Assembly: GCF_000718555.1 (NCBI RefSeq)
Contig: NZ_JOAN01000034.1
Span: forward strand, 1-32,755
DNA from: Micromonospora chokoriensis
GTDB lineage: Bacteria > Actinomycetota > Actinomycetes > Mycobacteriales > Micromonosporaceae
Direction of reading: 5' to 3'
DNA: 32,755 nucleotides
The notes under the pieces were generated by a model. The model did not search any database and was not told the DNA's origin. It saw only the letters and a list, made by a program, of their open reading frames with translations. The translations under genes and the position numbers were made by a program. This document shows, one piece after another, positions 446 to 31,904 of this stretch. How positions within the stretch are numbered: the stretch's first letter is position 1; the number at the start of each line of letters is the position of its first letter.

Positions 446-1282
446 TCACCCACGCTCGCTCGGCACCGCCGAATCCGCAGCGGAATCCGGAAAGCGTTCT
501 ACGAACGTGCGGTACACCGGTGTTCCCGGCAGGTTGTCGTGGATGGCGAACACCACGTGGTCGAAGCGATCGACCTCCCGCAGCGCGTAGGCGAAGGCGT
601 TGGCGACCGTAGCGGGATCATTGCGGAACACGCCGCATCCCCACGCGCCCAACACCAACGTCCGATGGCCGTGCGCTGCCGCGACCTCCAGCACCCGGCG
701 AGCACGCTGGGCCAGCACCGCCGGCACGTCCGCGACATGTTCGGGCTGGTTGCGGAGGATCTCGCCCAGGTTCGGCGCCGCAGCGGTCAGGAACGACGTG
801 GTGTACGGCTGGTCGAGCAGATCACCCTTGTCGTCCCGGAACACCGGCACGTACGGGGAGAAGATGACTCGGTCGCTGTACCGCAGGTCCCGCTGTGCGC
901 GGTGGAACGCATAGAACTCCGGGGCGGCAAGGAGACACGGGTACAGCGCCGAGGAACGGGCGATGCTCTCCTCCTGCGCCTTCGCCCCGCCCAAGAACCC
1001 ACCGCCCGGGTTCTTCGCCGAGGCGAACACCAGACAGGCCGTTCCGGGCGCCAGCCGACGGGCCGCCTGCAACGTCGACTCGTACGTCACCTCCACCCTG
1101 CCTCCACCGGGCTCCGCGTTACCCAGCGCGGGCACCTCGTCCGGCAGGTGGAGACGAGTGCTCGCGACTGCAGCCCGTACCAGCTCGCCAATGCCGACCT
1201 CGTGACCCGCGCTATTGCGATAGCGACCCGAATCGGCGATTGCGACCGTCTGCCGGGCAATCTCGCGAAGACGGCCGCTCAT
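446..1282 (-). CDS. Microbial-type PARG (TIGR02452 family)
   Basis: This 278-residue cytoplasmic protein matches the bacterial poly(ADP-ribose) glycohydrolase family, a macro-domain-like fold that removes ADP-ribose from modified targets. The family signature GGG-x6-8-QEE is present: GGG at residues 93-95 and Q103-E104-E105, where the paired glutamates are the expected catalytic site. The preceding 'FASAKNPGGGFLGG' context and the later 'LGAWGCGVFRNDP' glycine-rich loop are also typical. The length fits the full family. I chose the ATG at 1282 because the conserved N-terminal 'REIARQT' segment begins straight after it, although the ribosome binding site is weak. No ADP-ribosyltransferase or other obvious partner lies nearby. 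The function is a family inference; the substrate (protein, DNA or RNA) cannot be told from sequence. Confidence 0.9.
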   Translation of the reverse strand: MSGRLREIARQTVAIADSGRYRNSAGHEVGIGELVRAAVASTRLHLPDEVPALGNAEPGGGRVEVTYESTLQAARRLAPGTACLVFASAKNPGGGFLGGAKAQEESIARSSALYPCLLAAPEFYAFHRAQRDLRYSDRVIFSPYVPVFRDDKGDLLDQPYTTSFLTAAAPNLGEILRNQPEHVADVPAVLAQRARRVLEVAAAHGHRTLVLGAWGCGVFRNDPATVANAFAYALREVDRFDHVVFAIHDNLPGTPVYRTFVERFPDSAADSAVPSERG

Positions 1283-11126: not shown

Positions 11127-12262
11127 CCAAGGACAGTCCTGTCGTCGCCACGGCGGAGGGCTCCCGAGGGCCGCTTCAGGTCGCCCGCCGCCAGCAACTA
11201 TTGGCGGCCCTGCAACGGGACGGCTCGATGCGCGTCTCTGACCTGTCCCACGTGCTGGGCGCCGCGCCGGTCACCATCCGGCGCGACATCGCGGAGCTGG
11301 CCGCCGAGGGGTTGGTTCGCCGCGTCCACGGTGGGGTTGCCCTGATCCTGCCGGACGACGCGCCGGCAGCAGACGAGGCACCTGTCGCCGGCCTGGACCC
11401 GCTGGTCGGGCGGGCCCTCGGCATGCTCGTGCCCTCATTGGACTACTACTGGCCGGACGTGGCTCGCGGCGTCGAGGGAGCGGCCCGCGAGCTCGACATG
11501 CGCGTGGTTCTGCGCGGCTCCTCCTACGACACCGAGGACGACCAGCCGCAACTGGCCCGCCTCGTGGAGCGGATGGGCGTCGACGCGCTCATCATCGCGC
11601 CGAGCATGGACACACCGAGCGCCGAGCGCACCATCGAATGGCTCGACCAGGTCGGCGTCCCGGTCGTCCTGCTGGAACGCACCGCGACGGTGGGCAGCCA
11701 CCACGCGGTCATGGAGTCGGTGGTCACCGACCACGCGCTCGGTGCGGCCATGGCGGTACGCCACCTCACCTCGCTCGGACACCGCAAGGTCGGCCTGGTG
11801 CTCGACGCCAACAGCCCCACCAGCCAGCACGTACGACGCGGCTGGCTCGACGCCACGACCGAGTGCGGCCTCGACTCGGACGCGACGGTCGTGGCCGTGG
11901 TGCCCGACGCGCGGTCACCGGAGCGGGACACCGTACTCAACGACGTCCTCGACCGGTGCCGGGCGACCGGGACGACGGCGCTGCTGGTGCACGCCGACGC
12001 CGAGGCCATCGCGCTGGTGCAGCACTGCGAGGAGCGGCATCTCTCCGTTCCCGGCGATCTCTCCATCGTGGCGTACGACGACGAGGTCGCCGGGCTCTTC
12101 AGCCCGCCGCTGACCGCGGTCCGACCGCCGCGACGCTCGATCGGACGGGCCGCGGTGCGTCTCGTCGCCGACCGGCTCGTCGACCCCGAGCGCCCCACCC
12201 ACCGGATCGTCATCAGCCCGTCACTGCGGGTCCGGGGATCGACCGCGCCGCCACCCGCGTAG
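11123..12262 (+). CDS. DeoR-LacI hybrid transcription regulator
   Basis: This 379-residue regulator has an N-terminal DeoR-type winged helix (about residues 18-72: ARRQQLLAALQRDGSMRVSD, then VTIRRDIAELAAEGLVRRVHGG) fused to a LacI-like periplasmic-binding-protein domain (about residues 90-375, with HRKVGLVLD, LSIVAYDDE and LTAVRPP blocks). Such hybrids are common in actinomycete sugar clusters and normally act as repressors released by the sugar. The ATG at 11123 has GGAGGT five to six bases upstream. It is transcribed divergently from the uronate operon, and paired boxes lie on both promoters, so control of the operon and of itself is likely. The inducer is probably an unsaturated uronide or its breakdown product (inference). 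Confidence 0.9.
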   Translation: MTKDSPVVATAEGSRGPLQVARRQQLLAALQRDGSMRVSDLSHVLGAAPVTIRRDIAELAAEGLVRRVHGGVALILPDDAPAADEAPVAGLDPLVGRALGMLVPSLDYYWPDVARGVEGAARELDMRVVLRGSSYDTEDDQPQLARLVERMGVDALIIAPSMDTPSAERTIEWLDQVGVPVVLLERTATVGSHHAVMESVVTDHALGAAMAVRHLTSLGHRKVGLVLDANSPTSQHVRRGWLDATTECGLDSDATVVAVVPDARSPERDTVLNDVLDRCRATGTTALLVHADAEAIALVQHCEERHLSVPGDLSIVAYDDEVAGLFSPPLTAVRPPRRSIGRAAVRLVADRLVDPERPTHRIVISPSLRVRGSTAPPPA

Positions 12263-12739
12263 CTGCTCTTCCGTCTGCGAAGTCGGATGGGCGCTGGGCG
12301 TGATGGTCGCACGATGACCCGGAGACGTGGTGACGCGCACCCCGACGCAATGTGCTTCGTGCAGGTCACCGAGAGTCCGAACATGGGCGTCGAGGTGTCG
12401 ACTGGTCGGGCGTGGATTGGGGTTGCGGCCACGTACACCAGTAACCAGGCCCGCAGCTCGGCGTCGTGCCGCTCGGTGGCATCCAGGTCGTCGAGACTGG
12501 ACGACCAACCCATGCTGTAGGCCACCACCAGCGAAGGCCTCGACACCGACCGACTGTCGTTCACCACCGCAGCCACCATCCACCCGCACAGCGAACAACC
12601 GACCTCGTCCCTTGTCGACGACGCCATCACTCTCATCCCGGAACCGGGCCGACGACCTGCGGGAATGCTTAACTTCCTCGCGTTGGGCATAATGGCCGTG
12701 CCCCGGCCTCGGGCGAGGACGTGAGAGAGCGAGGAAGTC
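12263..12739. other. Gap between regulator and seven-gene operon
   Basis: About 480 bp with no gene I can support. A minus-strand frame reads a few protein-like pieces (LDATERHDAELRAWLLVYVA and FGLSVTCTKHIASG) but runs on through the flanking genes and has no plausible start or family match, so it is either a relic or chance. The last 80 bp hold the promoter of the next operon. Confidence 0.45.
12672..12738 (+). promoter_or_regulatory. Promoter region and inverted repeat
   Basis: CATAAT at 12688-12693 is a good -10 hexamer about 47 bp before the first ATG of the seven-gene operon; the -35 is unclear. A perfect 10-bp inverted repeat flanks it: ACTTCCTCGC at 12672-12681 and GCGAGGAAGT at 12729-12738. 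The second arm contains the ribosome binding site (GAGGAAG). The repeat could be a split operator for looping or a chance match; the left arm lies upstream of the likely transcription start, so it would not fold in the mRNA. Confidence 0.45.
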
Positions 12740-13783
12740 ATGCGATCGCCGACGGTGATCATCGACCTTTCGCCCGTCGTCCGCGACCAGAATCTCAACG
12801 ACTGGGGTTTAGTCGAGAAGATCGTTCGCGCCTGGCGCGCACAGCGCGACAACAACGCCACCTTCTACGGGGTCGCCGATAACAGTCTGTGGCACTGCCT
12901 CGACGAAGTGGGCAAGCGAGCATTGAGCGACTGGAAGAAGCGCAAGATCGCCCGTTCGGTACCGTTCGCCGACCCCGATATCATCGAGTTGGCCGAGCAG
13001 CACCCCCACGCGGTCGTCATCACCAGGGACCTCTACCGCGACCTGCGGCGTGATCACCCGTGGCTTCAGGGATCCGACAGATTTTTCAGCCCGGTCTACA
13101 CGGACGGAAAGGTCAGCTTCGAGCAACTGGTGATGGCGCCGATCGACGAGTCTGAAATGTCCATGCGTGTCGAGGCTGGTGGGCTCAAACCGAGAGGCCT
13201 AGCCTCGCCCGAGGCCCGACAGGTGCTGGATAGCGAGTGGGCTTGCGTCAACCCTGGGTGCGTCTGGGGCGGGCTGCCCGTGATCGACAAAGACCCTTAC
13301 TACCGCGACGGTGTCGTGCGGTGTCCTGACTGCGGCGAGCCGGTCAATCGTGTCGGAGCCATCGGCCACACCCGAGGGGTCGTCGTCTTCCTCGGCACCG
13401 AGGAGATTGATCGCTTCGCCGTTGCCGAAGGGCGAACGATTGTCGTCGGGCGCGCGAGAGGTGAGGACCGATATTGCGTACGGGACGTGCTGGAAGCGGC
13501 TCAATTCGCCCTCGTGAGCCGCGATCACCTCGCGGTATCCAACGTCAACGGCGATCTCTTCGTCGAGGATCTCGGCTCAAAGAACGGCACCAAGTTGAGT
13601 CACGACGGAACGACGACCGCACTTGAGCCAAGCGTGCGGCAGAGAGTCCTTCAGGGCGCCCGAATCAGTCTCGCGAAGGGTGCGCTTCAGATTCGGCGGT
13701 CCGGGCGCAAGCGGGTTCGCGCTCGTTGGGATCCTGATCTTGCGACGCCACCATGGGCAAACCCGAACAGAGAACACGCTTAG
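12740..13783 (+). CDS. NYN/PIN-like nuclease-zinc ribbon-FHA protein
   Basis: This 347-residue protein appears to have three parts. Residues 1-120 resemble a PIN/NYN-type ribonuclease: the strand VIIDLSPVV with D9, FYGVADNS with D47, ADPDIIELA with D78 and D80, and AVVITRDLYRD with D97 and D101, a spacing close to Zc3h12a-like NYN enzymes. Residues 169-199 hold four cysteines (C169, C174, C195, C198), a zinc ribbon. Residues about 213-320 are a forkhead-associated (FHA) domain with the phosphothreonine-binding signature G237-R238, S260-R261-x-H263 and N282-G283 (DLGSKNGT). FHA and zinc ribbon are clear; nuclease activity is an inference. As first gene of the operon it is probably the phospho-dependent effector read out from the kinase encoded downstream. 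Confidence 0.8.
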   Translation: MRSPTVIIDLSPVVRDQNLNDWGLVEKIVRAWRAQRDNNATFYGVADNSLWHCLDEVGKRALSDWKKRKIARSVPFADPDIIELAEQHPHAVVITRDLYRDLRRDHPWLQGSDRFFSPVYTDGKVSFEQLVMAPIDESEMSMRVEAGGLKPRGLASPEARQVLDSEWACVNPGCVWGGLPVIDKDPYYRDGVVRCPDCGEPVNRVGAIGHTRGVVVFLGTEEIDRFAVAEGRTIVVGRARGEDRYCVRDVLEAAQFALVSRDHLAVSNVNGDLFVEDLGSKNGTKLSHDGTTTALEPSVRQRVLQGARISLAKGALQIRRSGRKRVRARWDPDLATPPWANPNREHA

Positions 13784-13797
13784 GGCAAGGAACACTT

Positions 13798-14469
13798 ATG
13801 TCTCTACTCGACAGCCTCACACCCGCTGCGGCGAGGACGCTGCCAGTCATCCTGCTGCTCGACACGAGTGGCAGCATGCAGGAGGATAGCAAGATCGATG
13901 TTCTCAATGACGCCGTCACCGAGATGATTGACGAACTCGCGGAAGCTGATGCTGGCCATGGCTACATCACTCTCAGCATCGTGACCTTCGGCGGCAGCAG
14001 TGCCAAGGTGCTGGTCGAGCACACGCCGGTGGGCGAGGTCGAGTTCAGCTCCCTTACCGCTCGGGGAAAGACACCGCTCGGTGATGGCTTCCGGCTCGCC
14101 CGGGCGATTATCGAGGACAGAGACGCTCTGCCTTCGCGGGCCTACCGACCCACCATCGCCCTCGTCTCAGACGGCCTCCCTACTGACAGGAACTGGGAGG
14201 AGGAACTCGACGCGCTCCTGGCAAGCGAACGTGGGCAGAAGTGCACCAAGTTCGCGCTGGCGGTCGGAGCCGACGCAGATCGGGACATGCTGGCGCGCTT
14301 CAGCGGCAGCCAACCCCACACGACCGACCGCGCTGGCGAGATCCGCAAGTTCCTCCAGTTCGTCACAAACACGGTCACCAATGTCACCCTGACCGCCCTC
14401 GACTCGGTGCAGGACGATGCTGACACTGCCGCATCAATCGTGCGGCTCCAGGGCGACGATGCGTTCTGA
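13798..14469 (+). CDS. TerY-like vWA protein
   Basis: This 223-residue cytoplasmic protein is a stand-alone von Willebrand factor A domain of the TerY type. The metal-ion-dependent adhesion site is complete: D22-T-S24-G-S26 (DTSGS), the threonine of GKTPLGDG and the aspartate of VSDGLPTD. Such domains bind partner proteins through a divalent metal ion and, in TerY-type systems, are encoded next to a protein kinase and often a PP2C phosphatase. Here a kinase follows immediately, overlapping by 11 bp, and no phosphatase gene is seen. The start at 13798 has AAGGA six bases upstream and lies 14 bp after the FHA gene. It probably acts as the scaffold that brings kinase and client together. Confidence 0.92.
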   Translation: MSLLDSLTPAAARTLPVILLLDTSGSMQEDSKIDVLNDAVTEMIDELAEADAGHGYITLSIVTFGGSSAKVLVEHTPVGEVEFSSLTARGKTPLGDGFRLARAIIEDRDALPSRAYRPTIALVSDGLPTDRNWEEELDALLASERGQKCTKFALAVGADADRDMLARFSGSQPHTTDRAGEIRKFLQFVTNTVTNVTLTALDSVQDDADTAASIVRLQGDDAF

Positions 14470-15781
14470 CGCCACGCTTGTTACCGACGACGCCGGGGTC
14501 AACTTCACTCTCGGCCCTCTGATCGCCAAAGGTGGGCAGGGGGCGGTCTACCGGGTCGAGGGTTACCCCGAAGTGGCCATCAAGCTGCTCGAACGACCGG
14601 AGGACCTCGAACGGATCAAGAGCGTACGCCGGTTGCCGCTCGACGGCCTTCCCGTGGCCGCACCCGTAACACTGATCCAGGGCCGCCGCTCGGGGTACAC
14701 AATGCGCCTCGCCAGCGACATGCGACCGTTGCGGGAGCCGTACCTGCCAAGCGATTTCGGCCCCCGTGAGACGACCCCGAGGTGGTACTCGGAGACAGGC
14801 GGCCTCCGACGCCGGCTAGCGATCGCGGCTAACACCGCAGATGTAATCGCGAAGCTCCACGGACTTGGCCTGACCTACGTCGACCTCAACCCCAACAACG
14901 TCATGGTCTCCGTCGACCTCACCCGAGACGTGACGTGGTTGATCGACTGCGACAACCTGACGTCGATGTCCAAGCCGAAGTGGGATGTCCTCGGCTTCCG
15001 CGGATATGCCGCACCCGAACGTAAGCGCAAGGCACCACCGTCCACGCTCGCCGACGCCTACATCCTCGGCGTTCACGTGTTCCGCATGCTCGTTCTGCGG
15101 CACCCGCTGGAGGGCGCTATGGCTGACGCACTCGATGGCAACGAGGCACGCGAACGGATGGACCGCGGCGACCTGCCCTACGTCGCAGACCGCGACGACG
15201 ACTCCAACAGGCTGGCGCGCGGAACATTCGGGTGGGGCATCTTCGACCTCGTGCTCAGCAAGCAAGTGCAGAGACTTTGCCGTCAAACATTCTCCGAGGG
15301 ACGCCTCGACCCCACGAAGCGCCCCGGCTCCGCACGCTGGCGCGAAGTCCTGTTCGCCGCATTGAACAATGTCATCGACTGCCCGGCGCCTTGCGGCTGG
15401 TCGTACTTCCGGACTGTCAAGGCCTGTCCGAGTTGCGGGACCCCCAGCGGTGCCGTCGCCCTGCTGTCCGTCTATGGCGGCGACTTCGAGCAGCCGCTCT
15501 CCGAACGCGACACCTTCGTCGTTTCACAAAGCATCGACACCGCCGTCCTTCCCCGGCACCTCTGGGGGAGGTTCGACCAGCACGACGCCGTCGTCACCCT
15601 TCAGCCGACGAGTCGAGGGCTCGAGATAAAGCCTCAACACGACGTCACGCTCACCGACAAGTCCGGCAAGGTCACCCAGCGGGTGCGCCTCCCCGCTCCC
15701 GGACGTGTTGTGCGGCTCAAGCTGGAAGCACCTGGCCGACCAGCGCGGATGCTGGCGCTCCGGACCATGGCTGCGTCGTGA
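14459..15781 (+). CDS. Divergent protein kinase with zinc ribbon
   Basis: This 440-residue protein is a Ser/Thr-kinase-like enzyme. The glycine-rich loop AKGGQGAVYRV (23-33) and the lysine K42 (VAIK) are normal. The catalytic loop is YVDLNPNNV, with D142 and N147 kept but HRD changed to YVD and the usual lysine changed to asparagine. The DFG position reads IDCDN (D163, D165). These changes match the kinases paired with TerY-type vWA proteins rather than the classical Pkn family, and activity is plausible. A zinc ribbon (CPAPC...CPSCG) lies at about 307-332, followed by a beta-rich tail. It has no membrane segment. The ATG lies inside the vWA gene, and its TGA overlaps the helicase GTG. Autophosphorylation or a partner's threonine may be the FHA ligand. 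Confidence 0.87.
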   Translation: MRSDATLVTDDAGVNFTLGPLIAKGGQGAVYRVEGYPEVAIKLLERPEDLERIKSVRRLPLDGLPVAAPVTLIQGRRSGYTMRLASDMRPLREPYLPSDFGPRETTPRWYSETGGLRRRLAIAANTADVIAKLHGLGLTYVDLNPNNVMVSVDLTRDVTWLIDCDNLTSMSKPKWDVLGFRGYAAPERKRKAPPSTLADAYILGVHVFRMLVLRHPLEGAMADALDGNEARERMDRGDLPYVADRDDDSNRLARGTFGWGIFDLVLSKQVQRLCRQTFSEGRLDPTKRPGSARWREVLFAALNNVIDCPAPCGWSYFRTVKACPSCGTPSGAVALLSVYGGDFEQPLSERDTFVVSQSIDTAVLPRHLWGRFDQHDAVVTLQPTSRGLEIKPQHDVTLTDKSGKVTQRVRLPAPGRVVRLKLEAPGRPARMLALRTMAAS

Positions 15782-18700
15782 AACTCCTCGGCTTTCCCTG
15801 CAGCGCGGATCGCACCATTCGGCTCAGCTCGCGAGAAAGCGTCGGCGGTGCGGCTGGCCAGCGGGTTCGCTTGTCCTTCTCCGGCTCAGGAGTCCTGCTG
15901 ACAGCAGACGGGACCTCATGGATGTGCGACCCGCCCGAGCCGGACGACCTGGAGTGGCTGCAGACCGTAGCGTCCGCGGGTACCTATGTCGTCGAGCTCC
16001 TCCAACCGGGCACCGACGTGGTCCTTCGCGTCCTCACTTTCGACGGCATCCAGCACTGGACCGAGCCACGGGAAATCGGGGTCGACGACCTGATCGTCGA
16101 GACTGCTCAGAGGACCAACCGATCGCTGAAACGCTCCACTGACGTCATCGACTGGCTGACGGAGACGATCTGCCTCGCCGGCCCCGAACCGATGGCCGTC
16201 GTAGTAGCGTCCTCCGGGACCCACGACGACAAGAACGGAGCGTTCCGGCTCGTCGGCGCCGGGATCGCGATGGATGTCAAACTTCTTGACGAGCGGCTCG
16301 TCGCCTCCCGAATCGTTCGCTACCGGCCACGGGCCGAACGTCGGCTCCTGCTGGTGCGGGGAGAGATCCGGTTCAGTGACATCTCGCGCACGGCGCCGCT
16401 CTCCTACATGCAGCAGCAGGAGTTGCGCCAGCTCGCCGAAGAGAACAACGCCTATCTGGCGATCTGGGACGAGTACAACCAACTCGAGCTAAACGCGGCT
16501 GCGGCCGCCGCGCGGGATATCGGCTGGGCGCCCTATGACCGAGTGTCCCGTCGGGCCGACGGCAGTTGGGAGTTCGAGTTGCGTACGCATCTGCGATCGG
16601 ATGCCCTACGTGACCGGATTGGTTCGGAGACCGTCGGGCTCGAAGCCGGTGCCAAAGTCGCCTTTGACGAGACCGTGGACACCGGACGCTCATCCACGAC
16701 CAAAGTGATCATCGGGCTGGGCCGCGTAACCCGACAGGGAACGATCGTCATTACTCCATCCGCAGACGACGGCGACGTCGCGCTTCCCCAGAGCGGGCAC
16801 GTGGCGGGCGCGTTCACACTCGACAAGGTCCGGATCGACCGCCGGAACAGGGCTCGAGAGGCGATAACCGATGGCACGACCGTGCCGGTGCGGCAGCTGG
16901 CGACGATCCTTGGCGACAAGCCTCCCATCCCGGTCGGCCGTCGTCGCCTGCATCCCCCAATGTCCGCACGGGTTCGCGAAGTCCTCGGCGGTCAGCCAAC
17001 GCCAGCACAGCTACAAGCCATCGACATGGCAATCAACTCGCCGGACGTCGCCCTGATCCAGGGCCCTCCTGGCACGGGCAAGACCCGCGTCATCGCCGCG
17101 ATCCAAGCGAGACTCGCGGAGATCAACCGCGGCGAGTCCGCCCTAGCTCGTCGCGTCCTGCTCACGAGCTACCAGCACGACGCGGTCGCGAACCTCGTCC
17201 AAGCCGCGGACGACGGGACCCTACCTCCCGTAAAACTTGGGCGGCAGGACGGCCGAGAGGACCAATCGCACCTTGCTGCGTGGACACACGACCTCATCAA
17301 ACGGCTCGAGCGCAGACATGCCACGTCCCACTCCGGCGACATCCTCCGCGCTCAGCGCGAGCTCGCGGACCGGACCGACTACTACCTCAATGTCAATCCG
17401 AACGTCACCGAGACTGTCGAACTTCTCGGCTGGATCGAACGACATGTCGACCTCGTGGACGCTGGGATCGCCGTCGATGCCGGCAGAGCGGCACGCCGAC
17501 TCACCTACGAGCTTGGCGCCGCCGGCGCACGGGTGCACCAGGAGCGGATCCTTGCCCTCGCCAGGAGACTGCGGACCACCGCTGCCGGGTACGAGGATGA
17601 CGGTGCAGACACTGCTCGTGCCGCCTTCACGACGCAGTCGTTCCACGACACCCTCGACGGCGAGCAACGCAGGAACCTCGAGGCCGCCGCACGCGGGGAC
17701 CTGAGCATCGACGAAGCGATCAAGTCCATGGCAGCCATCCGCGACAGTGTCATCGACCGCGTGCTGGACAGCCGCGCCAGGGCTGGCTTCGTCTCACGAT
17801 TCCCCGAGGTGGACGCGATTCTTCAGCGCGCCCGCAACGAAGCACAGCGACAGGTTGACCTGCAAGTCACCTCGGTCGATCGGGTCGTTGCCGGGTTTCG
17901 GGACGTCGTCGAACGCCAACCCGCGGCCGTCCATGACTCGATCATGGCCCACACGCGCGCGCTCGCCGCAACCTGCCAGCAGTCCGTCTCCGGCTCGATG
18001 CGCGACGTGCAATCAGTCCCCTTCGACACAGTCATCGTCGACGAGGCAGCTCGCGCCAACCCGCTCGATCTGATGATCCCACTCGCTCTGGCCAGTGGCC
18101 GTGCGATTCTGGTCGGCGACCATCGTCAGCTGCCTCAACTGCTGGACGAGACGATCGCGCCGAAGATCTCAGCCCGTCACGACTCAGTCGTCGTGAGGAA
18201 TGTACTGAGCCGGTCGTTGTTCGAGCGCCTATTCACCAAGCTGCAGGATGCAGAACGCCGGGACGGGCAGAAGCGGGTCATAACCCTCGACCGTCAATAC
18301 CGCATGCACCCAGTGCTCGGCACGTTCATCAACCAGCAGTTCTACGCCCCGTACGGAGAGCACGTCACGAACGGATTCTCCGACGAGGCACGGTTCGCGC
18401 ACGGGCTCACGAGGTACTCAGGGGCAGCGTGCGGATGGCTCGACGTACCACCGGAGTCAGGCCCCGAGGTCAGGGCTGGGAGCAGCTTCAGCCGGCCTGC
18501 CGAGGCGACTGTCATCGTGAACGAGCTCAAGGACGCGCTCGAAGAGAACCACGACCTCACCTTCGGGGTCGTGACGTTCTATAAGGGGCAGGCGGCAGCG
18601 ATCTGGCGGGAGATGCGCGAAGCCGGACTCGCAGACAGGGACGAGACACTGAACTCCTCGTACCCCGCGCTGTGGTCCTCGCGCGGACTGCCCCGCGTCA

Positions 18701-18978
18701 GAATCGGGACCGTCGACGCGTTCCAGGGCCGCGAGTTCGATGTCGTGTTCCTCTCCACGACGAGATCCAGGCGATCAGGATCGCGGCAGAGACCGCAATT
18801 CGGCTTCCTCGTCCTGCCGAACCGTCTGTGCGTCGCGATGAGCCGCCAGCGCAGGCTTCTCGTCGCTGTCGGCGACTCCAGCATGTACAGCACAGATGAG
18901 GCACGCGAGGCTCTACCCGCACTCCACGCGTTCTTCGAGCTGACGGGGGGAGAACATGGCCTCCGCCGACGTCCGTGA
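15778..18978 (+). CDS. Upf1/Dna2-like SF1 helicase
   Basis: This 1066-residue protein carries a complete superfamily 1B helicase core in its C-terminal 640 residues. Walker A is QGPPGTGKT (about 428), motif Ia LLTSYQHDAV, motif II VIVDEAA (about 752), motif III LVGDHRQLPQ (about 778), motif IV RQYRMHP, motif V TVDAFQGREFD (about 978) and motif VI VAMSRQR (about 1020). A roughly 200-residue helical insertion separates Ia and II. The N-terminal 420 residues are unrecognised and contain beta-rich segments that may bind partners or nucleic acid. GTG at 15778 overlaps the kinase TGA (GTGA), and no better start is seen. It should move along DNA or RNA using ATP; as in Upf1 and Dna2 either is possible. 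Confidence 0.93.
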   Translation: MKLLGFPCSADRTIRLSSRESVGGAAGQRVRLSFSGSGVLLTADGTSWMCDPPEPDDLEWLQTVASAGTYVVELLQPGTDVVLRVLTFDGIQHWTEPREIGVDDLIVETAQRTNRSLKRSTDVIDWLTETICLAGPEPMAVVVASSGTHDDKNGAFRLVGAGIAMDVKLLDERLVASRIVRYRPRAERRLLLVRGEIRFSDISRTAPLSYMQQQELRQLAEENNAYLAIWDEYNQLELNAAAAAARDIGWAPYDRVSRRADGSWEFELRTHLRSDALRDRIGSETVGLEAGAKVAFDETVDTGRSSTTKVIIGLGRVTRQGTIVITPSADDGDVALPQSGHVAGAFTLDKVRIDRRNRAREAITDGTTVPVRQLATILGDKPPIPVGRRRLHPPMSARVREVLGGQPTPAQLQAIDMAINSPDVALIQGPPGTGKTRVIAAIQARLAEINRGESALARRVLLTSYQHDAVANLVQAADDGTLPPVKLGRQDGREDQSHLAAWTHDLIKRLERRHATSHSGDILRAQRELADRTDYYLNVNPNVTETVELLGWIERHVDLVDAGIAVDAGRAARRLTYELGAAGARVHQERILALARRLRTTAAGYEDDGADTARAAFTTQSFHDTLDGEQRRNLEAAARGDLSIDEAIKSMAAIRDSVIDRVLDSRARAGFVSRFPEVDAILQRARNEAQRQVDLQVTSVDRVVAGFRDVVERQPAAVHDSIMAHTRALAATCQQSVSGSMRDVQSVPFDTVIVDEAARANPLDLMIPLALASGRAILVGDHRQLPQLLDETIAPKISARHDSVVVRNVLSRSLFERLFTKLQDAERRDGQKRVITLDRQYRMHPVLGTFINQQFYAPYGEHVTNGFSDEARFAHGLTRYSGAACGWLDVPPESGPEVRAGSSFSRPAEATVIVNELKDALEENHDLTFGVVTFYKGQAAAIWREMREAGLADRDETLNSSYPALWSSRGLPRVRIGTVDAFQGREFDVVFLSTTRSRRSGSRQRPQFGFLVLPNRLCVAMSRQRRLLVAVGDSSMYSTDEAREALPALHAFFELTGGEHGLRRRP

Positions 18979-20182
18979 ACTGCCCGTCTACACCCTGTCG
19001 GAGCTCTCTCGTTGGGTCCGCTCGACAAGGCACACAGTCCTCACCCCCGCAGCCCGCTGGCGTGTCGTCGTTGAGCAACTCACACCGATCTCCAGCGATA
19101 TCCTGCTCGAAACCGTCCTCGAGCTTCGCATGGCAGGTGAGACGTCCAGCGAACGTATCAGCGACCTGTTGCAGATCCCTGTCGACCTCGTCCAGCACCT
19201 GCAGGCTCGGATCACGACCGACAAGCTCAAGTATTCGGGCGATGGACAGATTCGCACGGGGAAGTCATCCGTCACCTGGGTCTATCGCGATCTCGCGACT
19301 GGGGAACTCTGGCCGGAATCCGCAACTGACGCCCCACAGAAGAATGTGCGTTATGAGCGAACGTTTGCAGGAACACACGAGGCTGGTACCGCTGGCCGCC
19401 CAGAGTTGATTCACTGCGTGGTGCTCGACCACGAGGGGACCGAGCCGAGACAGCCAACCAGTATCGAGCTTGCGCGGTTTAGCAGCGCTTCCAGGGACCC
19501 CAACCGCCGAACGGTGCTCGTGAGCGACGCGGAGCGATGCCTGGTCATGAGCCCGCTGATGCGTACAAGCTCAGGCCTCGCCGTGATGACGTCGCTCGGT
19601 ACCCCGCATGTCGGACTCACCCAGGCCCTGGGCAGGTTCTCGGCCCACAACCAGCAGGCGCGGCGCTGGCTCCAGGGCGTCCCGGCGACGGGCCAGCCGG
19701 TTCGGCGGCGACGAACACCGCTGGTCGCGGCGATTGATGAGCTTCGTGACTCGCTCACGGAGTGGCGGGACAGTCATCATGATAGGGATCACCTCATCAG
19801 CCGAGCAGAGCTTGCGTTGCGCCGGGCCTGCGACCAGCGTTGGTACACGGCGCACCGCGACTCGTTCGAGACCTCGACCGATGAGGCGAATAGGGACCAA
19901 CTAATCGAGAAACTGGGCCTATCGAGAGAACGCGCGAATACCCTCATGCGCGCCGAAATTGGCAGCGTCGAGGAGGCGGTCCTCAAACTCGTCAGCGACC
20001 CAGCCTTCATCGAGATCGACGCAGAGTGGCTCCGCGCGTTAGCGGACGTTACCGCGAAATGGGTGGAGGCGACCCGACACAGCGTGCAGATTTCTCTCGA
20101 GCAGCTCGCCCAAGACGTCATCGATCTCTGCGCGCAACTGCAGAACAGCCAGGAGGTAGCCGATGTCGGCCAAACCGAATAA
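18956..20182 (+). CDS. Unrecognised protein of the seven-gene system
   Basis: I do not recognise this 408-residue protein. It has no signal peptide, membrane segment or cysteine cluster. Residues about 45-95 (DILLETVLELRMAGETSSER, then DLLQIPVDLVQHLQ) resemble a helical DNA-binding or winged-helix segment, and residues 305-350 (LIEKLGLSRERANTLMRAE) form another helix-rich segment. The middle contains alternating strand-like sequence. The gene is well supported: codon usage is like its neighbours, GGGGGGAGAAC lies before the ATG at 18956, and it overlaps the helicase by 23 bp and the next gene by 20 bp. Position between helicase and McrB-like ATPase suggests an adaptor or target-recognition subunit; this is only context. 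Confidence 0.85.
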   Translation: MASADVRELPVYTLSELSRWVRSTRHTVLTPAARWRVVVEQLTPISSDILLETVLELRMAGETSSERISDLLQIPVDLVQHLQARITTDKLKYSGDGQIRTGKSSVTWVYRDLATGELWPESATDAPQKNVRYERTFAGTHEAGTAGRPELIHCVVLDHEGTEPRQPTSIELARFSSASRDPNRRTVLVSDAERCLVMSPLMRTSSGLAVMTSLGTPHVGLTQALGRFSAHNQQARRWLQGVPATGQPVRRRRTPLVAAIDELRDSLTEWRDSHHDRDHLISRAELALRRACDQRWYTAHRDSFETSTDEANRDQLIEKLGLSRERANTLMRAEIGSVEEAVLKLVSDPAFIEIDAEWLRALADVTAKWVEATRHSVQISLEQLAQDVIDLCAQLQNSQEVADVGQTE

Positions 20183-22457
20183 GAACCGCGCAGCCGACGA
20201 CAAGGCGAAACTCGACGACATCGAGCGCGGCCTCGCCGCCGCCGAGGCGCCACCTGCCGATCTGCTGGCCGAGGCCGAGGCTGAGGGGATCGCCCTGAAC
20301 GACGAGTCGCTCAACGCGACGCGCCTGCGAAACGTGTGGCTTTCGGTCAGAAACAACGAGGCCGCATGGAAGAAGGCGCGCACCCTCGCAGAGCTGTCCC
20401 AGAGGGCAGCCGACGAGTCTCGCGCGGAGCTCGCCAAACGAGAGAAGGCGCTGACCGAGCGCGAAGAACTCGCTGCCGCGATGGACGCCGATCTCGCGCA
20501 GAAGGAAGCAGAACTCGAGAGGGCTCGCCTTGCCGCGCGGGAAGGCTTTGCCGACGAGCAGCGCGGCGTGCTTGACAACCTCAGGAGGAAGCACGCGGAC
20601 CTGCTGGAGCAGATCTCGGCGCTCGAGGAACGGGCTAACACCGAGGCTCAGAAGATTCTCGCGGAAGCGCGGACTCAAGCACGCCAGATTCGGGAGGAGG
20701 CGCAGCATGCGTTCCATGATCAGGTCGATGCTCTGTCGAGAGAACGTGCAGGCCTGTACTCCAGAGAGAGCGCGCTCGCCGAGCGCGAGACAAGGCTGAA
20801 GGCCGACCTAGAGTTGGCCGAGGCGAAGCAGGCGATGCTGGGGCAGCAGTTCCAGGTCCGACTGGGTATGGAAGTCGCGTCCGTTCAGGAGGAACGCGAC
20901 AGCGCCCAGGCCCGTTACGAGCTTGAACGTGCGAGACGTGAAGCGCTCGAACGGGAGCGCGCGGAGCTTCGAGCGGTACTCGCCCGCTACGGCGGCGACC
21001 CGCGAACCGCCAACGCACGCATCGACGAACTCGTCGAGCATAACCAGAGGCTGCTCGACGAGCTCTCCCGCCGCCCACCAGCCAACGAGATCGACGAAGT
21101 GCGCTCGCGCGCCGCCCGCGCCGAGGAAGCGCAGGCGGAGGCGGAAGCGCTCCGGCGCGAACGCGACCAACTCGACCGGCAGCTTCGCTATCAACTCATC
21201 AACGTCGGAGAGCTCGAGGTCTTGAGGGATCAGCGCGATGCGCTCACGGCCCAGAACGAGACGCTGCGGCAGTCGATCAAGCAACAGCGCGCGGAGTGGG
21301 AGGAACTCCAGTCGAAAGTCGGCGCCAATGACCCGTTCCCGGCGTGCTCGTCGTACGACCGTCACCAGGATCTGCAGGAAGCGCGGTACCTACGCCAACC
21401 AGAGTCCCTCGCCGCACTTGCGGACGACCTTCGGCACCAGATGGCACACTCGGCCGACTTCTACTTCACGGAGTCAGACGTCCGCCTGTTCCTCGCCGGT
21501 CTTGCCTCGAACAGGCTCCACCTGCTGCAGGGAATCTCCGGAACCGGGAAGACAAGCCTGCCGCGCGAGTTCTTCAAGGCTCTGAGCGGTGGAGACGACG
21601 CCGTCGAAATCGTCGAAGTCCAAGCGGGTTGGCGGGACAAGGACGACCTCTTCGGGTACTACAACGCCTTTGAGAAGCGTTTCGCGGAGAGCGAGTTCAC
21701 CAAGGCGCTCTACCGTGCGCTCCTTCCAGCCAACGCCGACCGCCCTATGGTGATCGTCCTCGACGAGATGAACCTCGCGCATCCCGAGCAGTACTTCGGA
21801 ACGATGCTCTCGGTCCTGGAGAACTCGATCGGTCAGGCAGGGTACATCGACCTCCTGACCAGCCCTCTGGACAGCCTGCCACGAGAGTTCGACGGCAACC
21901 GACTCCCGCTGCCGCCAAACGTCTGGTTCGTTGGGACCGCCAACCACGACGAGACGACCGTGGCGTTCGCCGACAAGACCTACGACCGAGCGCACGTCCA
22001 GGAGTTGCCGTCGCGTCACCAGCCTTTCCGGGCCTTGAGCCGACCCGAGACCGACCCTGTTTCCTTCGACGCTCTCATCGACCTGTTCGACGACGCCGCA
22101 AACACGCATGAAGACGCGGTGGGCCAGGCGAAGACCCTCTTGGACGACAGCCTCCGAAAGCTCTTCGCCACGTTCGGAGTCGGGTGGGGCAACCGTCTCG
22201 TGCGGCAACTCGACCTTTTCCTGCCCGTCGTTGTCGCTGCCGGCGGCACGCCTACCGAAGCACTCGACCACGTGGTGGCCACCAAGCTGGTGCGGAAGCT
22301 GGAGGACCGCTTCGGCGTCCAGCCCGACAACCTCGACAGCCTGGCGGATCGCATTGATCAAGCCTGGGGCAGTTTCGACAGAACGAACACTCCGACCAAG
22401 ACGATCGAGAAGATCAGAAAGGAAGCCGGACGGCTTCGAGTTGGATTCGGCTCATGA
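20163..22457 (+). CDS. Coiled-coil McrB-like AAA+ ATPase
   Basis: This 764-residue protein has two parts. Residues about 40-400 are a long, highly charged coiled coil rich in E, R, A and L (for example ADESRAELAKREKALTEREE). Residues about 430-764 are an AAA+ domain of the McrB type: Walker A GISGTGKT (about 457), Walker B VIVLDEMNLAHPEQYFG (about 530), with the EMNLA and PEQYFG blocks typical of McrB, and the GTANHDE sensor (about 592). McrB hexamers hydrolyse GTP or ATP to move DNA to the McrC nuclease; this protein lacks the usual McrB DNA-binding head, and the coiled coil replaces it. A perfect AGGAGG precedes the ATG at 20163. The DUF2357 partner overlaps its stop by 4 bp (ATGA), so stoichiometric expression is likely. 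Confidence 0.93.
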   Translation: MSAKPNKNRAADDKAKLDDIERGLAAAEAPPADLLAEAEAEGIALNDESLNATRLRNVWLSVRNNEAAWKKARTLAELSQRAADESRAELAKREKALTEREELAAAMDADLAQKEAELERARLAAREGFADEQRGVLDNLRRKHADLLEQISALEERANTEAQKILAEARTQARQIREEAQHAFHDQVDALSRERAGLYSRESALAERETRLKADLELAEAKQAMLGQQFQVRLGMEVASVQEERDSAQARYELERARREALERERAELRAVLARYGGDPRTANARIDELVEHNQRLLDELSRRPPANEIDEVRSRAARAEEAQAEAEALRRERDQLDRQLRYQLINVGELEVLRDQRDALTAQNETLRQSIKQQRAEWEELQSKVGANDPFPACSSYDRHQDLQEARYLRQPESLAALADDLRHQMAHSADFYFTESDVRLFLAGLASNRLHLLQGISGTGKTSLPREFFKALSGGDDAVEIVEVQAGWRDKDDLFGYYNAFEKRFAESEFTKALYRALLPANADRPMVIVLDEMNLAHPEQYFGTMLSVLENSIGQAGYIDLLTSPLDSLPREFDGNRLPLPPNVWFVGTANHDETTVAFADKTYDRAHVQELPSRHQPFRALSRPETDPVSFDALIDLFDDAANTHEDAVGQAKTLLDDSLRKLFATFGVGWGNRLVRQLDLFLPVVVAAGGTPTEALDHVVATKLVRKLEDRFGVQPDNLDSLADRIDQAWGSFDRTNTPTKTIEKIRKEAGRLRVGFGS

Positions 22458-24526
22458 CAAGAGCTGTCGACCGCGTCTCTGGTGCCCTCAGCCTTCCCGT
22501 AGGAGGTTGGACAGGAAGGTGGTATGACGACGGCCACCATGTCCTCGACACCGCATCCGCAGCTGCCGGTGCCCATACCCGGGACGACATCACATCCGAC
22601 GATCTCGATGCGCTGGCGACGCTGGAGAAGCCGTTGACGGACGCCTGCGCGTCAGGCATGTGGACTCGGTTAGCGTCGTGCCAGTTGCTCGCCAGCCACG
22701 ACGACGAGACCCTCCAACTGCAGCAACGCGAGCAGGTGCTGAAGCAGCACATCGGCTCGATCGCGCGCGTGTGCAGTCGGTTCATCACACGCCTTGGCGA
22801 ACGGGTGGAACTCCTGCCTGTCGCACGCGTAAAACGCCCCGCTCGCCGGGCGATAGATCGGCTGGCCGGGCACACCGAGGACTGGGCGGCTCGCACCCTG
22901 GCCGGACCGATCCCGCGCCGAGCACTGGCTGTCACACGGATCGAAGACGCCGACCTGTATGAGAACCGAATGGTCGTTGAGTTGATCCACCCGATCCTCG
23001 ACGGCGACCTCCGCAGCCGGATCAACCTTCTTCGCCGTCTGAAGCAGGACCTCGCAGACCTCGAACGCGCTCGGCACGAAGGTACGCGCCTGCGGCTGGA
23101 CCGCCTCTACGGGTTCTGGGGCGCCGAGGCGATCAACGCGAGTAACGCCACCGGTCAGGCGACACAGACGTTGCGTGCGCTGGAGGAACTGCTCACCCGA
23201 GTCCAGACCCTACGAGGCAGCGAACTCGCGACCCTCCTCCGCGGGCGACGCACTGGGCAGCGCTCGCTCAGGCGGACCAATGTCACGGACAACGACCGGC
23301 ACTACCACGCGGCGGGGATCGTGTGGCGAGAGTACGAGCGCCCAGAAACCAAACGCGAGTCGACCGACGCCCGCCACAAACGGCTTGGCGCCCGTCACCG
23401 CATCTTCGACGACTACGTCATGGGCCTCATCGCCCGTTCGCTCGACAACCTCGCATGCGTTCCCACCCCCGACCAGATACCTCTGCCCGATCAGCCCGCC
23501 TCACTCGACGGCCCTTGGGGACCGGTGATCGTTCACCGCGAGCACACCGGCGTGACCATCGTCGAGTCTGCCGGTGTCCGTACGCGGTTCGTTCCGCTGC
23601 TCGACCTTCTGTCCCCTGATGCTGATGAGTCTGAGGTTCGCGAGCGCTGGGGGAGTCTGCCAAGCACCAGCGAGGGCCAGACGGTTGTCGTCTACCTCGC
23701 GTCATCGGAGCATGTCCGGGGCGTCGTACCTGATCTCTCGCTTCCGGCACTCTCCAGCGGACCCGACGGACAGCACGGGCGCTCGGCGGTCGTCGGCGTC
23801 CCCGTCTCTCCCCTCGAGACCACCAGCCTCGAGCGAGTTGCACGAGCGGTCTCGATCGCCGCCCTGGAGCCTGCCCTCGCCGCCTACCCGACCGACATCC
23901 GTGTACGTCGCGGAAAGCTGCCCCGCCGGTTGGTCGATCACCTCTGGGGATCCAAGATCGCCCAAGATGGCCTACCACCACTTCTTGATCGCCCGGACGT
24001 GGATCACATCAGATTGCGCCGGCCACTCACAGCCATCGAACAGAGCAGGCTGGAGGGTGTTCTCGATGCCCTGCAGCAGCGGACGACAGCCAGGAGGGGT
24101 TGGGAACGAGACATCGCGACGGAGATCACGCAGCTTCGTGAAGCTCTTGAGGCAGCGGCGAAGCAGGTGCGGCGCCTTCTGCGCTGCCCTGGCTGCGGCG
24201 TAGCTGCTGGTCCGGAGCAAGTAACCCGATCGAGCGACATCCTTTCGATCACCTGTCGAAGCTGCAACTTCAGGTGGGGACACGAGAGGTGTGGCATCTG
24301 CCAGGCGCGGATAGCGATCCTTGAACCCACCCACGACCTGCCAAGTCCAGAAGTCAGTGGCATCGGGTGGGTCGAACGCATCTTCGGACGTGACGCACTC
24401 GCGTCTCCATGCTGGGCCCGAACCGTTCCAAAGCGGTACGTCTGCCCGTCATGCGGTGCATGCCCGATCAGCGATCATTCAGAAGGTAAGGCGTGTTCCC
24501 GATGCCATGGCGCCAAAGGCACCTGA
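22454..24526 (+). CDS. DUF2357-like protein with Cys-rich C-terminus
   Basis: This 690-residue protein is the probable partner of the McrB-like ATPase. Residues about 95-190, with GERVELLPVARVKRPARRA and EDADLYENRMVVELIHPIL, match the DUF2357 type found with McrB-like ATPases in restriction-like systems, where an N-terminal interaction domain is often followed by a nuclease. I do not see a clear PD-(D/E)xK nuclease motif here. The middle is unrecognised. The C-terminus is packed with zinc-binding pairs: CPGC, CRSC, CGIC, CPSC and CSRC from about residue 578 on, suggesting two or more zinc ribbons for nucleic-acid or protein binding. The start at 22454 overlaps the previous stop as ATGA. Family assignment by motif is moderate; the zinc ribbons are certain. 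Confidence 0.82.
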   Translation: MTRAVDRVSGALSLPVGGWTGRWYDDGHHVLDTASAAAGAHTRDDITSDDLDALATLEKPLTDACASGMWTRLASCQLLASHDDETLQLQQREQVLKQHIGSIARVCSRFITRLGERVELLPVARVKRPARRAIDRLAGHTEDWAARTLAGPIPRRALAVTRIEDADLYENRMVVELIHPILDGDLRSRINLLRRLKQDLADLERARHEGTRLRLDRLYGFWGAEAINASNATGQATQTLRALEELLTRVQTLRGSELATLLRGRRTGQRSLRRTNVTDNDRHYHAAGIVWREYERPETKRESTDARHKRLGARHRIFDDYVMGLIARSLDNLACVPTPDQIPLPDQPASLDGPWGPVIVHREHTGVTIVESAGVRTRFVPLLDLLSPDADESEVRERWGSLPSTSEGQTVVVYLASSEHVRGVVPDLSLPALSSGPDGQHGRSAVVGVPVSPLETTSLERVARAVSIAALEPALAAYPTDIRVRRGKLPRRLVDHLWGSKIAQDGLPPLLDRPDVDHIRLRRPLTAIEQSRLEGVLDALQQRTTARRGWERDIATEITQLREALEAAAKQVRRLLRCPGCGVAAGPEQVTRSSDILSITCRSCNFRWGHERCGICQARIAILEPTHDLPSPEVSGIGWVERIFGRDALASPCWARTVPKRYVCPSCGACPISDHSEGKACSRCHGAKGT

Positions 24527-24657
24527 ACCCCCAGGACCCCGGCGTTGTTCCGTGTTTGGCTCCGTCCTGAAACGCCATGACTGGGAGTTGCCTAGCGGAC
24601 GAGCACCGGGAGTCGGCGTTCACGCCGCAGGCACGTGACCGGAGCCCGTATCACTGT

Positions 24658-27499: not shown

Positions 27500-27964
27500 C
27501 TAGATGTCCAGGTTCAGGACCGCGGCGTTGACCGCCAGCACATCACCGCTGAGATCCGGTATCTCGACGACCTCGACACCCGCCTGCCGCAGCAGTTGCA
27601 CTCCAACGCACCGGACGAAGAGGGGCGGTTCCCGCAGGGCGAGCACCACCCGGGAGATACCCGAGCTGACAATCATTTCGGTGCACGTGACGGGGTAGGA
27701 CCGCCGGCTGCTGCACGGTTCCATCGAGGTGTACAGCGTGCTGCCCGTGGGCACCGGCCCGATTGGCCCGAGCTTCGTCAGGGCGACCTGCTCTGCATGG
27801 GCTGCCGGGGAGTCCTCCCGGGAGTACCCGGTGGCGAGTTCACGGCCGGACGGGTCGACGAGAACCGCGCCCACCGCGTACGCGTTCATGGTCGGGGGGC
27901 ATCGTCGGGATAGCTCGACTGCCTTTTGTAACCATCGGCGGTCCTGTTCCTGCTGCTTGGACAT
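27500..27964 (-). CDS. Cytidine/deoxycytidylate deaminase-like protein
   Basis: This 154-residue protein is a zinc-dependent deaminase of the RibD/dCMP-deaminase type. The site is complete: H56-A-E58 (HAE, with E58 as proton shuttle) and C84 and C94 (EPCSSRRSYPVTC), the second pair spaced by nine residues as in the family members that have a long PC-x8-C variant. An alpha-beta-alpha core with TGYSRED, TLYTSMEPC and VVLALREPP follows. The substrate is unknown; riboflavin-pathway and nucleotide-related substrates are both known for this fold. The ATG at 27964 has GGGAGG upstream. A relic of an oxygenase gene ends 37 bp ahead, so the two may once have been one transcript. Confidence 0.88.
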   Translation of the reverse strand: MSKQQEQDRRWLQKAVELSRRCPPTMNAYAVGAVLVDPSGRELATGYSREDSPAAHAEQVALTKLGPIGPVPTGSTLYTSMEPCSSRRSYPVTCTEMIVSSGISRVVLALREPPLFVRCVGVQLLRQAGVEVVEIPDLSGDVLAVNAAVLNLDI

Positions 27965-28001
27965 GCGCTGCCTGTCCTCCCGTGCGGTGGCCGACCGATG
28001 A

Positions 28002-31013: not shown

Positions 31014-31028
31014 CTAGGTGTTCTGCCC
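31014..31028. repeat. Left IR end of IS481 element with CTAG
   Basis: CTAGGTGTTCTGCCC: the terminal inverted repeat of the element together with one copy of the CTAG target site. It is the perfect complement of the right end at 32001-32015. Confidence 0.9.
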
Positions 31029-31904
31029 AGAGAGGTTGAGGACGCGGCTGGCGGGTGGGCCGCCGAGTGCGGTGTGATGGCGGTGGTGATTGTAGGCGTG
31101 GAACCAGGCGGGTAGGGCCGCTCGTCGGGCGGTTTCAGATCGGTTGGGCTTGGCGTAGGCCCATTCGTCGGTCATGGTCCGGTGGAAACGCTCGACCTTG
31201 CCGTTTGTCTGTGGCCGGTAGGGGCGGGTCTTCTTGACGGTGACACCGAGCTGGGTGCAGGTGTCGTGCCAGAGCCGGGACTTGTAGCAGGAGCCGTTGT
31301 CGGTGAGGACGCGGCGGACGGTGCTGCCGGACGAGCGGAACCAGGCGTGGGCGCGTTGCCAGAACGCGGCAGCGGTGTCTTGACGTTCGTCAGGAAGGAT
31401 TTCGGTGTAGGCCAGCCTGGAGTGATCGTCGATCGCGGTGTGCAGGTAGGCGTAGCCGAGCCGGGCGCCGCCGTCGGGGATGTTGCCGAGCTTCTTGATG
31501 CCGATGTGGACCAGGTCGCCGGGATGGGGGTGTTCGTAGCGGCGGATCGGTTCTCGGGTAGCCCGGTCGAGATGGGCCAGGCGGGCGACGCCCGCGCGGC
31601 GCAGGATCGCGTGGCAGGTTGAGGCGCCGACCCGGGCGGGTCCCCAACGCCGGCTCGTTCGTAGATGCAGCACCTGGCGTTCCACCTGGGGGCGGGTGCG
31701 GTTCGGGCTGTGGTGCGGCCGGCTGGAGCGGTCTTTCATTCCCGCAGCGCCTTCGACGCGGTAGCGCTCGGACCAGCGTTTCGCTGTCGTCGGGCTGACC
31801 TGCAACCGTTCCGCGGCCCGGCGCAGCGGCCACTCGTCATCGACGACGTAGCGGGCCAGACGCAGTCTGCCGCGTTCGGTCAGGGGTGCACTAGCGTGGG
31901 GCAC
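31014..31904 (-). CDS. IS481-family transposase (probably inactive)
   Basis: This 296-residue DDE integrase-fold transposase has an N-terminal helix-turn-helix (AAERLQVSPTTAKRWSERY, about 31-49) and a catalytic core. Family motifs are KKLGNIPDGG, DDHSRLAY, VLTDNGSCY with D202 and NGKVERFHRTM with E238. In close family members KKLG is preceded by H-V/I-D; here the first triad residue is glycine (VHIGIKKLG, G135), so D is replaced, one base change away. The segment after IPDGG also lacks about 15-20 residues found in relatives. It is therefore probably catalytically dead. The GTG at 31904 is preceded by GGGAGGT. The final TAG is completed by the CTAG target duplication at 31014-31017. Confidence 0.85.
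   Translation of the reverse strand: MPHASAPLTERGRLRLARYVVDDEWPLRRAAERLQVSPTTAKRWSERYRVEGAAGMKDRSSRPHHSPNRTRPQVERQVLHLRTSRRWGPARVGASTCHAILRRAGVARLAHLDRATREPIRRYEHPHPGDLVHIGIKKLGNIPDGGARLGYAYLHTAIDDHSRLAYTEILPDERQDTAAAFWQRAHAWFRSSGSTVRRVLTDNGSCYKSRLWHDTCTQLGVTVKKTRPYRPQTNGKVERFHRTMTDEWAYAKPNRSETARRAALPAWFHAYNHHRHHTALGGPPASRVLNLSGQNT

What the first reader, a model, noticed from the sequence alone, without database searches (positions are those of the whole stretch)
12740..24526. Seven-gene kinase/vWA/FHA-helicase-McrB system: candidate undescribed anti-phage system
Seen: seven co-directional genes with almost no spacing (gaps of 14 bp and overlaps of 11, 4, 23, 20 and 4 bp) encode a NYN/PIN-like-Zn ribbon-FHA protein, a vWA protein, a TerY-type kinase, an SF1 helicase, an unknown protein, a coiled-coil McrB-type ATPase and a DUF2357-like protein. 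Known: TerY-type vWA and kinase genes form conflict-associated triads with PP2C; McrB/McrC-type pairs cut DNA; FHA domains read phosphothreonine. Inference: infection activates the kinase, phosphorylated proteins recruit the FHA-nuclease, and helicase plus McrB-type pair attack or sense invader DNA. I do not recognise this exact seven-gene set, and the missing PP2C suggests FHA reading has replaced reset by a phosphatase.
Basis: partly seen in the sequence, partly recalled or inferred. Interest (0 to 1): 0.95.

Follow-up and report, generated by a model that had tools for sequence, protein, structure and literature searches.

The report
CoCoNuT with phospho-guided RNA cutter
This bacterial seven-gene cluster is a variant of a known, predicted RNA-targeting defence system (Type II CoCoNuT) in which the usual RNA-cutting subunit shows no conserved active-site motif and an extra protein, predicted to be an RNA cutter joined to a reader of phosphate tags, has been added, so that a kinase would likely decide when and where RNA is cut.

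Summary
The seven genes are real, tightly packed, and keep their order in four other loci as far as each reaches. Six are not an unknown set: they match vWA, kinase, UPF1-like helicase, CnuE, NxD McrB and DUF2357 genes of Type II CoCoNuTs (PMC11090510). The new part is gene A, modelled as a Regnase-type NYN nuclease, Cys4 ribbon and FHA domain, with key residues invariant in 32 of 32 aligned relatives. A-bearing loci form one clade. Their CnuE shares only its N-terminal half with other CnuE, and its C-terminal part has no conserved HEPN R(x4-6)H motif, which 9 of 10 loci without A have. Function is inferred; nothing was tested at the bench. Verdict: new variant of a known kind.

The parts
12740..13783 (+). 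Gene A: NYN nuclease (residues 1-131, 12740-13132), Cys4 ribbon (C169/C174/C195/C198, 13244-13333), FHA (208-324, 13361-13711)
   Evidence: Pfam FHA; 73 relatives; 32-row alignment with D9, D47, D78, D97, four Cys, G237 R238 S260 R261 H263 N282 invariant; model pLDDT 85.4; fold matches
13798..14469 (+). Gene B: TerY-like vWA protein
   Evidence: PF13519 2.3e-10; PADLOC TerY 0.001; DTSGS; BLAST to vWA of L010-L014 at 5e-56 to 5e-36
14459..15781 (+). Gene C: Ser/Thr kinase with C-terminal CxxC ribbon; clade-wide Thr in DNLTS at 14960-14962 (T182 of the long frame from 14417)
   Evidence: PF00069; motifs; alignment with 12 others; T182
15778..18978 (+). Gene D: UPF1-like SF1 helicase (CnuH)
   Evidence: AAA_11/AAA_12, TIGR00376, MkoA; BLAST to CnuH of L010-L014 at 3e-155 to 4e-42; tree
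18956..20182 (+). Gene E: CnuE-like; wHTH (19088-19249) in the conserved N-terminal half; C-terminal helical bundle (19712-20167) without a conserved R(x4-6)H
20163..22457 (+). Gene F: long N-terminal part, then NxD McrB-type NTPase (CnuB); Walker A from 21531, NHD at 21942-21950
   Evidence: AAA_5; PDC-M26A; motifs; N594 and D596 invariant in 8 rows; BLAST to CnuB of L010-L014 at 2e-114 to 1e-58
22454..24526 (+). Gene G: DUF2357-type McrC homologue with C-terminal CxxC pairs (CnuC)
   Evidence: alignment and BLAST to proteins annotated DUF2357
12276..24616 (.). Accessory block: homology to same-genus relatives stops at both edges
   Evidence: 6 of 6 fetched relatives end at 12262-12275; 2 of 2 restart at 24617/24634; GC3 0.73-0.79 inside against 0.82-0.86 for u1, u2, d1, d2

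Best explanation
The seven genes form a conserved operon whose last six products match Type II CoCoNuT proteins, and whose first product, predicted to be a Regnase-type NYN ribonuclease fused to an FHA phosphothreonine reader, likely takes over the cutting step from CnuE, which here shows no conserved HEPN active-site motif. Proposed working (inferred): the NxD McrB ring with the DUF2357 partner, and the UPF1-like helicase with the CnuE scaffold, assemble on foreign or aberrant RNA. The vWA-linked kinase then fires and phosphorylates threonines in the complex, in its own activation segment or in the helicase. The FHA domain docks gene A there and its NYN domain cuts the RNA that the helicase exposes. 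Shown: gene order, motifs, predicted folds, a single clade, and the co-occurrence of A with a CnuE lacking the motif. Inferred: nuclease activity, the phosphosite, the partner, the RNA target, and defence.
Against: Gain of A and change of CnuE fall in one clade, so this is a single event. The C-terminal part of E has no detectable profile match to the HEPN part of other CnuE (only residues 7-243 align), so the shared column depends on a weak alignment, and E may carry a different, unrecognised activity. 27 of 56 E-family rows have some R(x4-6)H somewhere in their last 150 residues, among them L015 (RAHNSH), and the window's near relatives P0075 and P0076 have one close to the column. One locus without A (L010) lacks the motif at the column. 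T182 was picked from nine Thr positions that passed the filter, and 72 of 89 kinase relatives not matched to an A contig also have it. Only 13 of 57 E hits and 31 of 120 kinase hits share a contig length with an A hit; Pseudonocardia hierapolitana, Rhodococcus sp. IEGM 1351 and Agromyces humi show kinase and E but no A, so A may be absent or different there. CnuH may carry an RNase-like RTL domain (published; not tested here).
Confidence: 0.52

Rival explanations
1. A replaces the PP2C phosphatase as reader or off-switch of the kinase circuit; the nuclease of the system is elsewhere (RTL of CnuH, or E).
For: PP2C is absent from the window and from the fetched stretches of the 4 other A loci, and present in 4 plasmid loci without A.
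Against: PP2C is also absent from 6 loci without A: L014, L054, L055, L056, L093, L094. A lies before vWA, not between vWA and kinase where PP2C lies. A has invariant nuclease-type aspartates.
Confidence: 0.17
2. A is a DNA-acting nuclease and the set is a Type IV-like DNA restriction system: the McrB/McrC pair recognises DNA and A or G cuts it.
For: McrB/McrC family core; the CoCoNuT authors allow that some domains could bind ssDNA.
Against: The authors report that CnuC of Type II lack the PD-(D/E)xK motif; NYN neighbours named (Regnase, ZC3H12C, KHNYN, PRORP) are ribonucleases; the UPF1-like class acts on RNA and ssDNA.
Confidence: 0.12
3. The operon is not a phage-defence system but an RNA quality-control or stress system (ribosome or transcript rescue).
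For: UPF1-like helicase; SmpB-like domain published for CnuH; a Pfam scan of 10 neighbouring proteins showed no named defence family.
Against: Patchy presence: A in 1 of 396 phylum genomes, the window's own; accessory block between conserved chromosomal genes; related loci lie on plasmids, one about 10 kb from an annotated zorA.
Confidence: 0.19

Closest known systems
Type II CoCoNuT with TerY-P (Bell et al. 2024, PMC11090510)
   Same: vWA, kinase with zinc ribbon, UPF1-like helicase, wHTH-CnuE, NxD McrB, DUF2357 CnuC in the same order
   Different: no PP2C; CnuE without a conserved HEPN R(x4-6)H; extra NYN-ribbon-FHA gene at the 5' end. The terms FHA and NYN have 0 occurrences in the main text and the one 'forkhead-associated' concerns EssC; supplements not seen
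Human SMG1-UPF1-Regnase-1 mRNA decay (PMC7145602)
   Same: NYN-fold RNase, UPF1-type helicase, kinase, phosphothreonine as the likely link
   Different: in Regnase-1 the RNase domain itself binds pT28 of UPF1; here a separate FHA domain would read; SMG1 is a PIKK, the window's kinase a PF00069 kinase; analogy, not descent
Mokosh (MkoA, MkoB)
   Same: D matches PADLOC MkoA at 1.5e-88 and the kinase matches MkoA weakly; CnuE of L011 matches MkoB weakly, 0.00022
   Different: kinase and helicase are separate genes; none of the window's seven proteins matches MkoB; McrB-type pair, vWA and FHA-NYN are added
PADLOC candidate PDC-M26
   Same: gene F matches PDC-M26A, 7.8e-32
   Different: none of the seven proteins matches another PDC-M26 component

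Membership tests
Type II CoCoNuT | NxD (not NxxD) McrB-type NTPase | tested here: met
   NHDE at 594, N594/D596 invariant in 8 rows; definition
Type II CoCoNuT | NTPase fused to a long coiled coil | tested here: inconclusive
   about 450 residues precede Walker A, with weak SMC-type matches; no coiled-coil predictor was run
Type II CoCoNuT | linked UPF1-like SF1 helicase (CnuH) | tested here: met
   TIGR00376 1.9e-38; BLAST 3e-155 to 4e-42 with the helicases of L010-L014
Type II CoCoNuT | CnuE N-terminal wHTH part after the helicase gene | tested here: met
   profile match over residues 7-243, probability 98.6, E 1.2e-15; wHTH rows at 45-98
Type II CoCoNuT | CnuE C-terminal HEPN domain | tested here: inconclusive
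Type II CoCoNuT | HEPN RxxxxH motif ('conserved in most cases') | tested here: not met
   absent near the column in window, L015, L017, L018; present in 9 of 10 loci without A; no conserved R-H pair in the E family
Type II CoCoNuT | CnuC: DUF2357 with inactivated PD-(D/E)xK and zinc ribbon | tested here: inconclusive
   homology to DUF2357 proteins and CxxC pairs; the nuclease fold was not modelled here
Type II CoCoNuT | CnuB falls in the published Type II clade | not tested
   the published tree was not rebuilt; only a local tree of 11 CnuB
TerY-P triad | vWA + PP2C + kinase | tested here: not met
   PP2C_2 at 4 places of the genome, none on the window's contig; no tblastn match in the window
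Mokosh type I | kinase-helicase MkoA with MkoB (recalled) | tested here: not met
   kinase and helicase are separate genes, no MkoB match
NYN (Regnase-type) RNase | NYN/PIN-like fold with conserved acidic residues | tested here: met
NYN (Regnase-type) RNase | RNase activity | not testable with these tools
   needs enzymology
FHA domain | fold and conserved phosphopeptide-binding residues | tested here: met

The most novel reading that the evidence does not exclude
A bacterial immune system that works like phospho-UPF1 mRNA decay: a kinase tags a UPF1-like helicase (or itself) on invader RNA, and a dedicated phosphothreonine-reading, Regnase-like RNase is recruited to cut it. It would be convergent with SMG1-UPF1-Regnase-1/SMG6 and would have evolved by swapping the HEPN effector of a CoCoNuT for a phospho-guided one.
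Probability: 0.3. Interest if true: 0.9.

Novelty: new variant of a known kind. Interest (0 to 1): 0.73.

Why it matters
TerY-P-type kinases sit in many conflict systems, but what their phosphorylation does is open (as far as I know). Here a phospho-reader is encoded in the operon and fused to a predicted nuclease, so substrate and output of the kinase become directly testable: find what the FHA domain binds. If right, it shows how a CoCoNuT changes its effector, and gives bacteria a counterpart of phosphorylation-guided, UPF1-linked RNA decay.

Tried and rejected
FHA-for-PP2C replacement: rejected as the main reading after PP2C proved missing in loci without A. RWYTAH in E as a HEPN motif: rejected, not conserved in L015/L017/L018 or across the E family. 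A in plasmid, phage and viral collections: no match. More A loci in genome samples: only the window's own in 396 phylum genomes; the kinase search in 397 genomes of the order gave 3 others, none with A. A weak DUF2357-like match in G188 was not followed. Of 266 plasmid records matching F, only the best five were opened; two phage records with a partial F match were not opened. Foldseek on E gave nothing at E <= 0.001. Conserved Thr as FHA target: nine positions passed the filter (B 38 and 212, C 173 and 182, D 343, E 53, G 20, 267 and 377); I favour C 182 (activation segment) and D 343 (helicase), neither proved. Contig sharing was judged by equal contig length typed; clusters show only their longest contig, so it is indirect. 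Papers: PMC11090510 read in sections 7 and 9 and by passages, supplements not opened; PMC7145602 abstract and one section; PMC4132714 abstract; PMC7159879 passages; the rest listings only. That the A-bearing form is not in print rests on searches and find-, within that library only.

Full report
Observation. The window is placed at G000:C34:1-32755 of a 6.97 Mb genome. Its nearest named relatives by protein are in Micromonospora (kinase 96%, E 86%), Dactylosporangium and Catellatospora, so the host is most likely a Micromonosporaceae, probably Micromonospora (inference).

What the core is. Gene F matched 266 plasmid records; the five best that I opened (Deinococcus, Pseudanabaena, Rhodoferax, Polaromonas, Nostoc) have vWA, PP2C (4 of 5), kinase, helicase, unknown, AAA and DUF2357-type genes in this order. 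This is the Type II CoCoNuT with TerY-P of Bell et al.. BLAST of the window's B, C, D, F and G against these five loci gives matches throughout (weakest G against L014, 3e-9). F has the NxD motif that marks this branch. E matches other CnuE by profile over residues 7-243 (probability 98.6). So B to G are a CoCoNuT core with vWA and kinase, not an unknown set.

PP2C. It lies in the operon in L010-L013. It is on no locus contig of L054-L056, L093 and L094 and nowhere on the L014 plasmid, and tblastn finds none in the window or the fetched stretches of L014-L018, L054-L056, L093, L094. Its loss is wider than the gain of A, so A is not simply a stand-in for the phosphatase.

How it may work. Kinase motifs and the start of the vWA MIDAS are intact. 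Nine positions are Thr in all A loci that reach them and in at most one of 8 others (L093 and L094 were fetched later). Two are attractive for FHA docking: T182 in the kinase activation segment (5 of 5 against 0 of 8) and T343 of the helicase (5 of 5 against 1 of 8). Of 120 listed kinase relatives, all 31 whose contig length equals that of an A hit have Thr at 182, but so do 72 of the 89 others. The human parallel is close: Regnase-1, a NYN RNase, binds UPF1 phosphorylated at T28 by SMG1 and cuts RNA unwound by UPF1 (PMC7145602); SMG5-SMG7 and SMG6 carry 14-3-3-like phospho-readers, though SMG6 binds UPF1 mostly without phosphate (PMC4132714, abstract). I take this as analogy. PIN-FHA combinations are mentioned among vWA-MoxR conflict effectors (PMC7159879, passage), so the domain pairing itself is not unheard of.

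Mobility and rarity. LacI-side homology to 6 of 6 fetched same-genus relatives ends at 12262-12275, and ABC-side homology restarts at 24617 and 24634 in 2 of 2 (of 40 other genus genomes, 9 and 3 had long matches of 78% identity or more to the two sides). In G581 the two sides lie about 270 kb apart. GC3 inside is 0.73-0.79. A was found in 1 of 396 phylum genomes, the window's own, and not in plasmid, phage or viral collections.

Open points. Only 13 of 57 E hits and 31 of 120 kinase hits share a contig length with an A hit. Three named genomes have kinase and E but no listed A. Whether A is always present in the clade is therefore unsettled.

Verdict. Ordinary in its core, new in its effector: a Type II-like CoCoNuT variant with a phospho-reading NYN nuclease. 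One feature of canonical Type II, the HEPN motif, is tested and not met, so I call it a derived variant and not a standard member.

Noticed in passing
   Followed up: partly
L010 11385-12848: Deinococcus CnuE beside a PP2C lacks R(x4-6)H at the column where the other nine loci without A have it.
   Followed up: no
window 446-1282: Microbial-type PARG (PF10021, 2e-48) near the contig start.
   Followed up: no
window 31014-31904: IS481-type integrase-core transposase about 6.5 kb after the operon.
   Followed up: no
window 27500-27967: Cytidine-deaminase-fold protein (PF00383; also Inv-AAD, PF18785, over the cut-off).
   Followed up: no
L013 27825-29224: Annotated zorA (Zorya) some 10 kb after the Polaromonas plasmid CoCoNuT.
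   Followed up: no
L012 and L013, upstream of vWA: A sigma-54-interacting regulator gene precedes both operons; the CoCoNuT paper describes RtcR-like regulators near such loci.
   Followed up: no
P0170/P0098, P0208/P0124, P0184/P0127: Pseudonocardia, Rhodococcus and Agromyces hold the A-clade kinase and E, but no A was listed from their contigs.
   Followed up: partly
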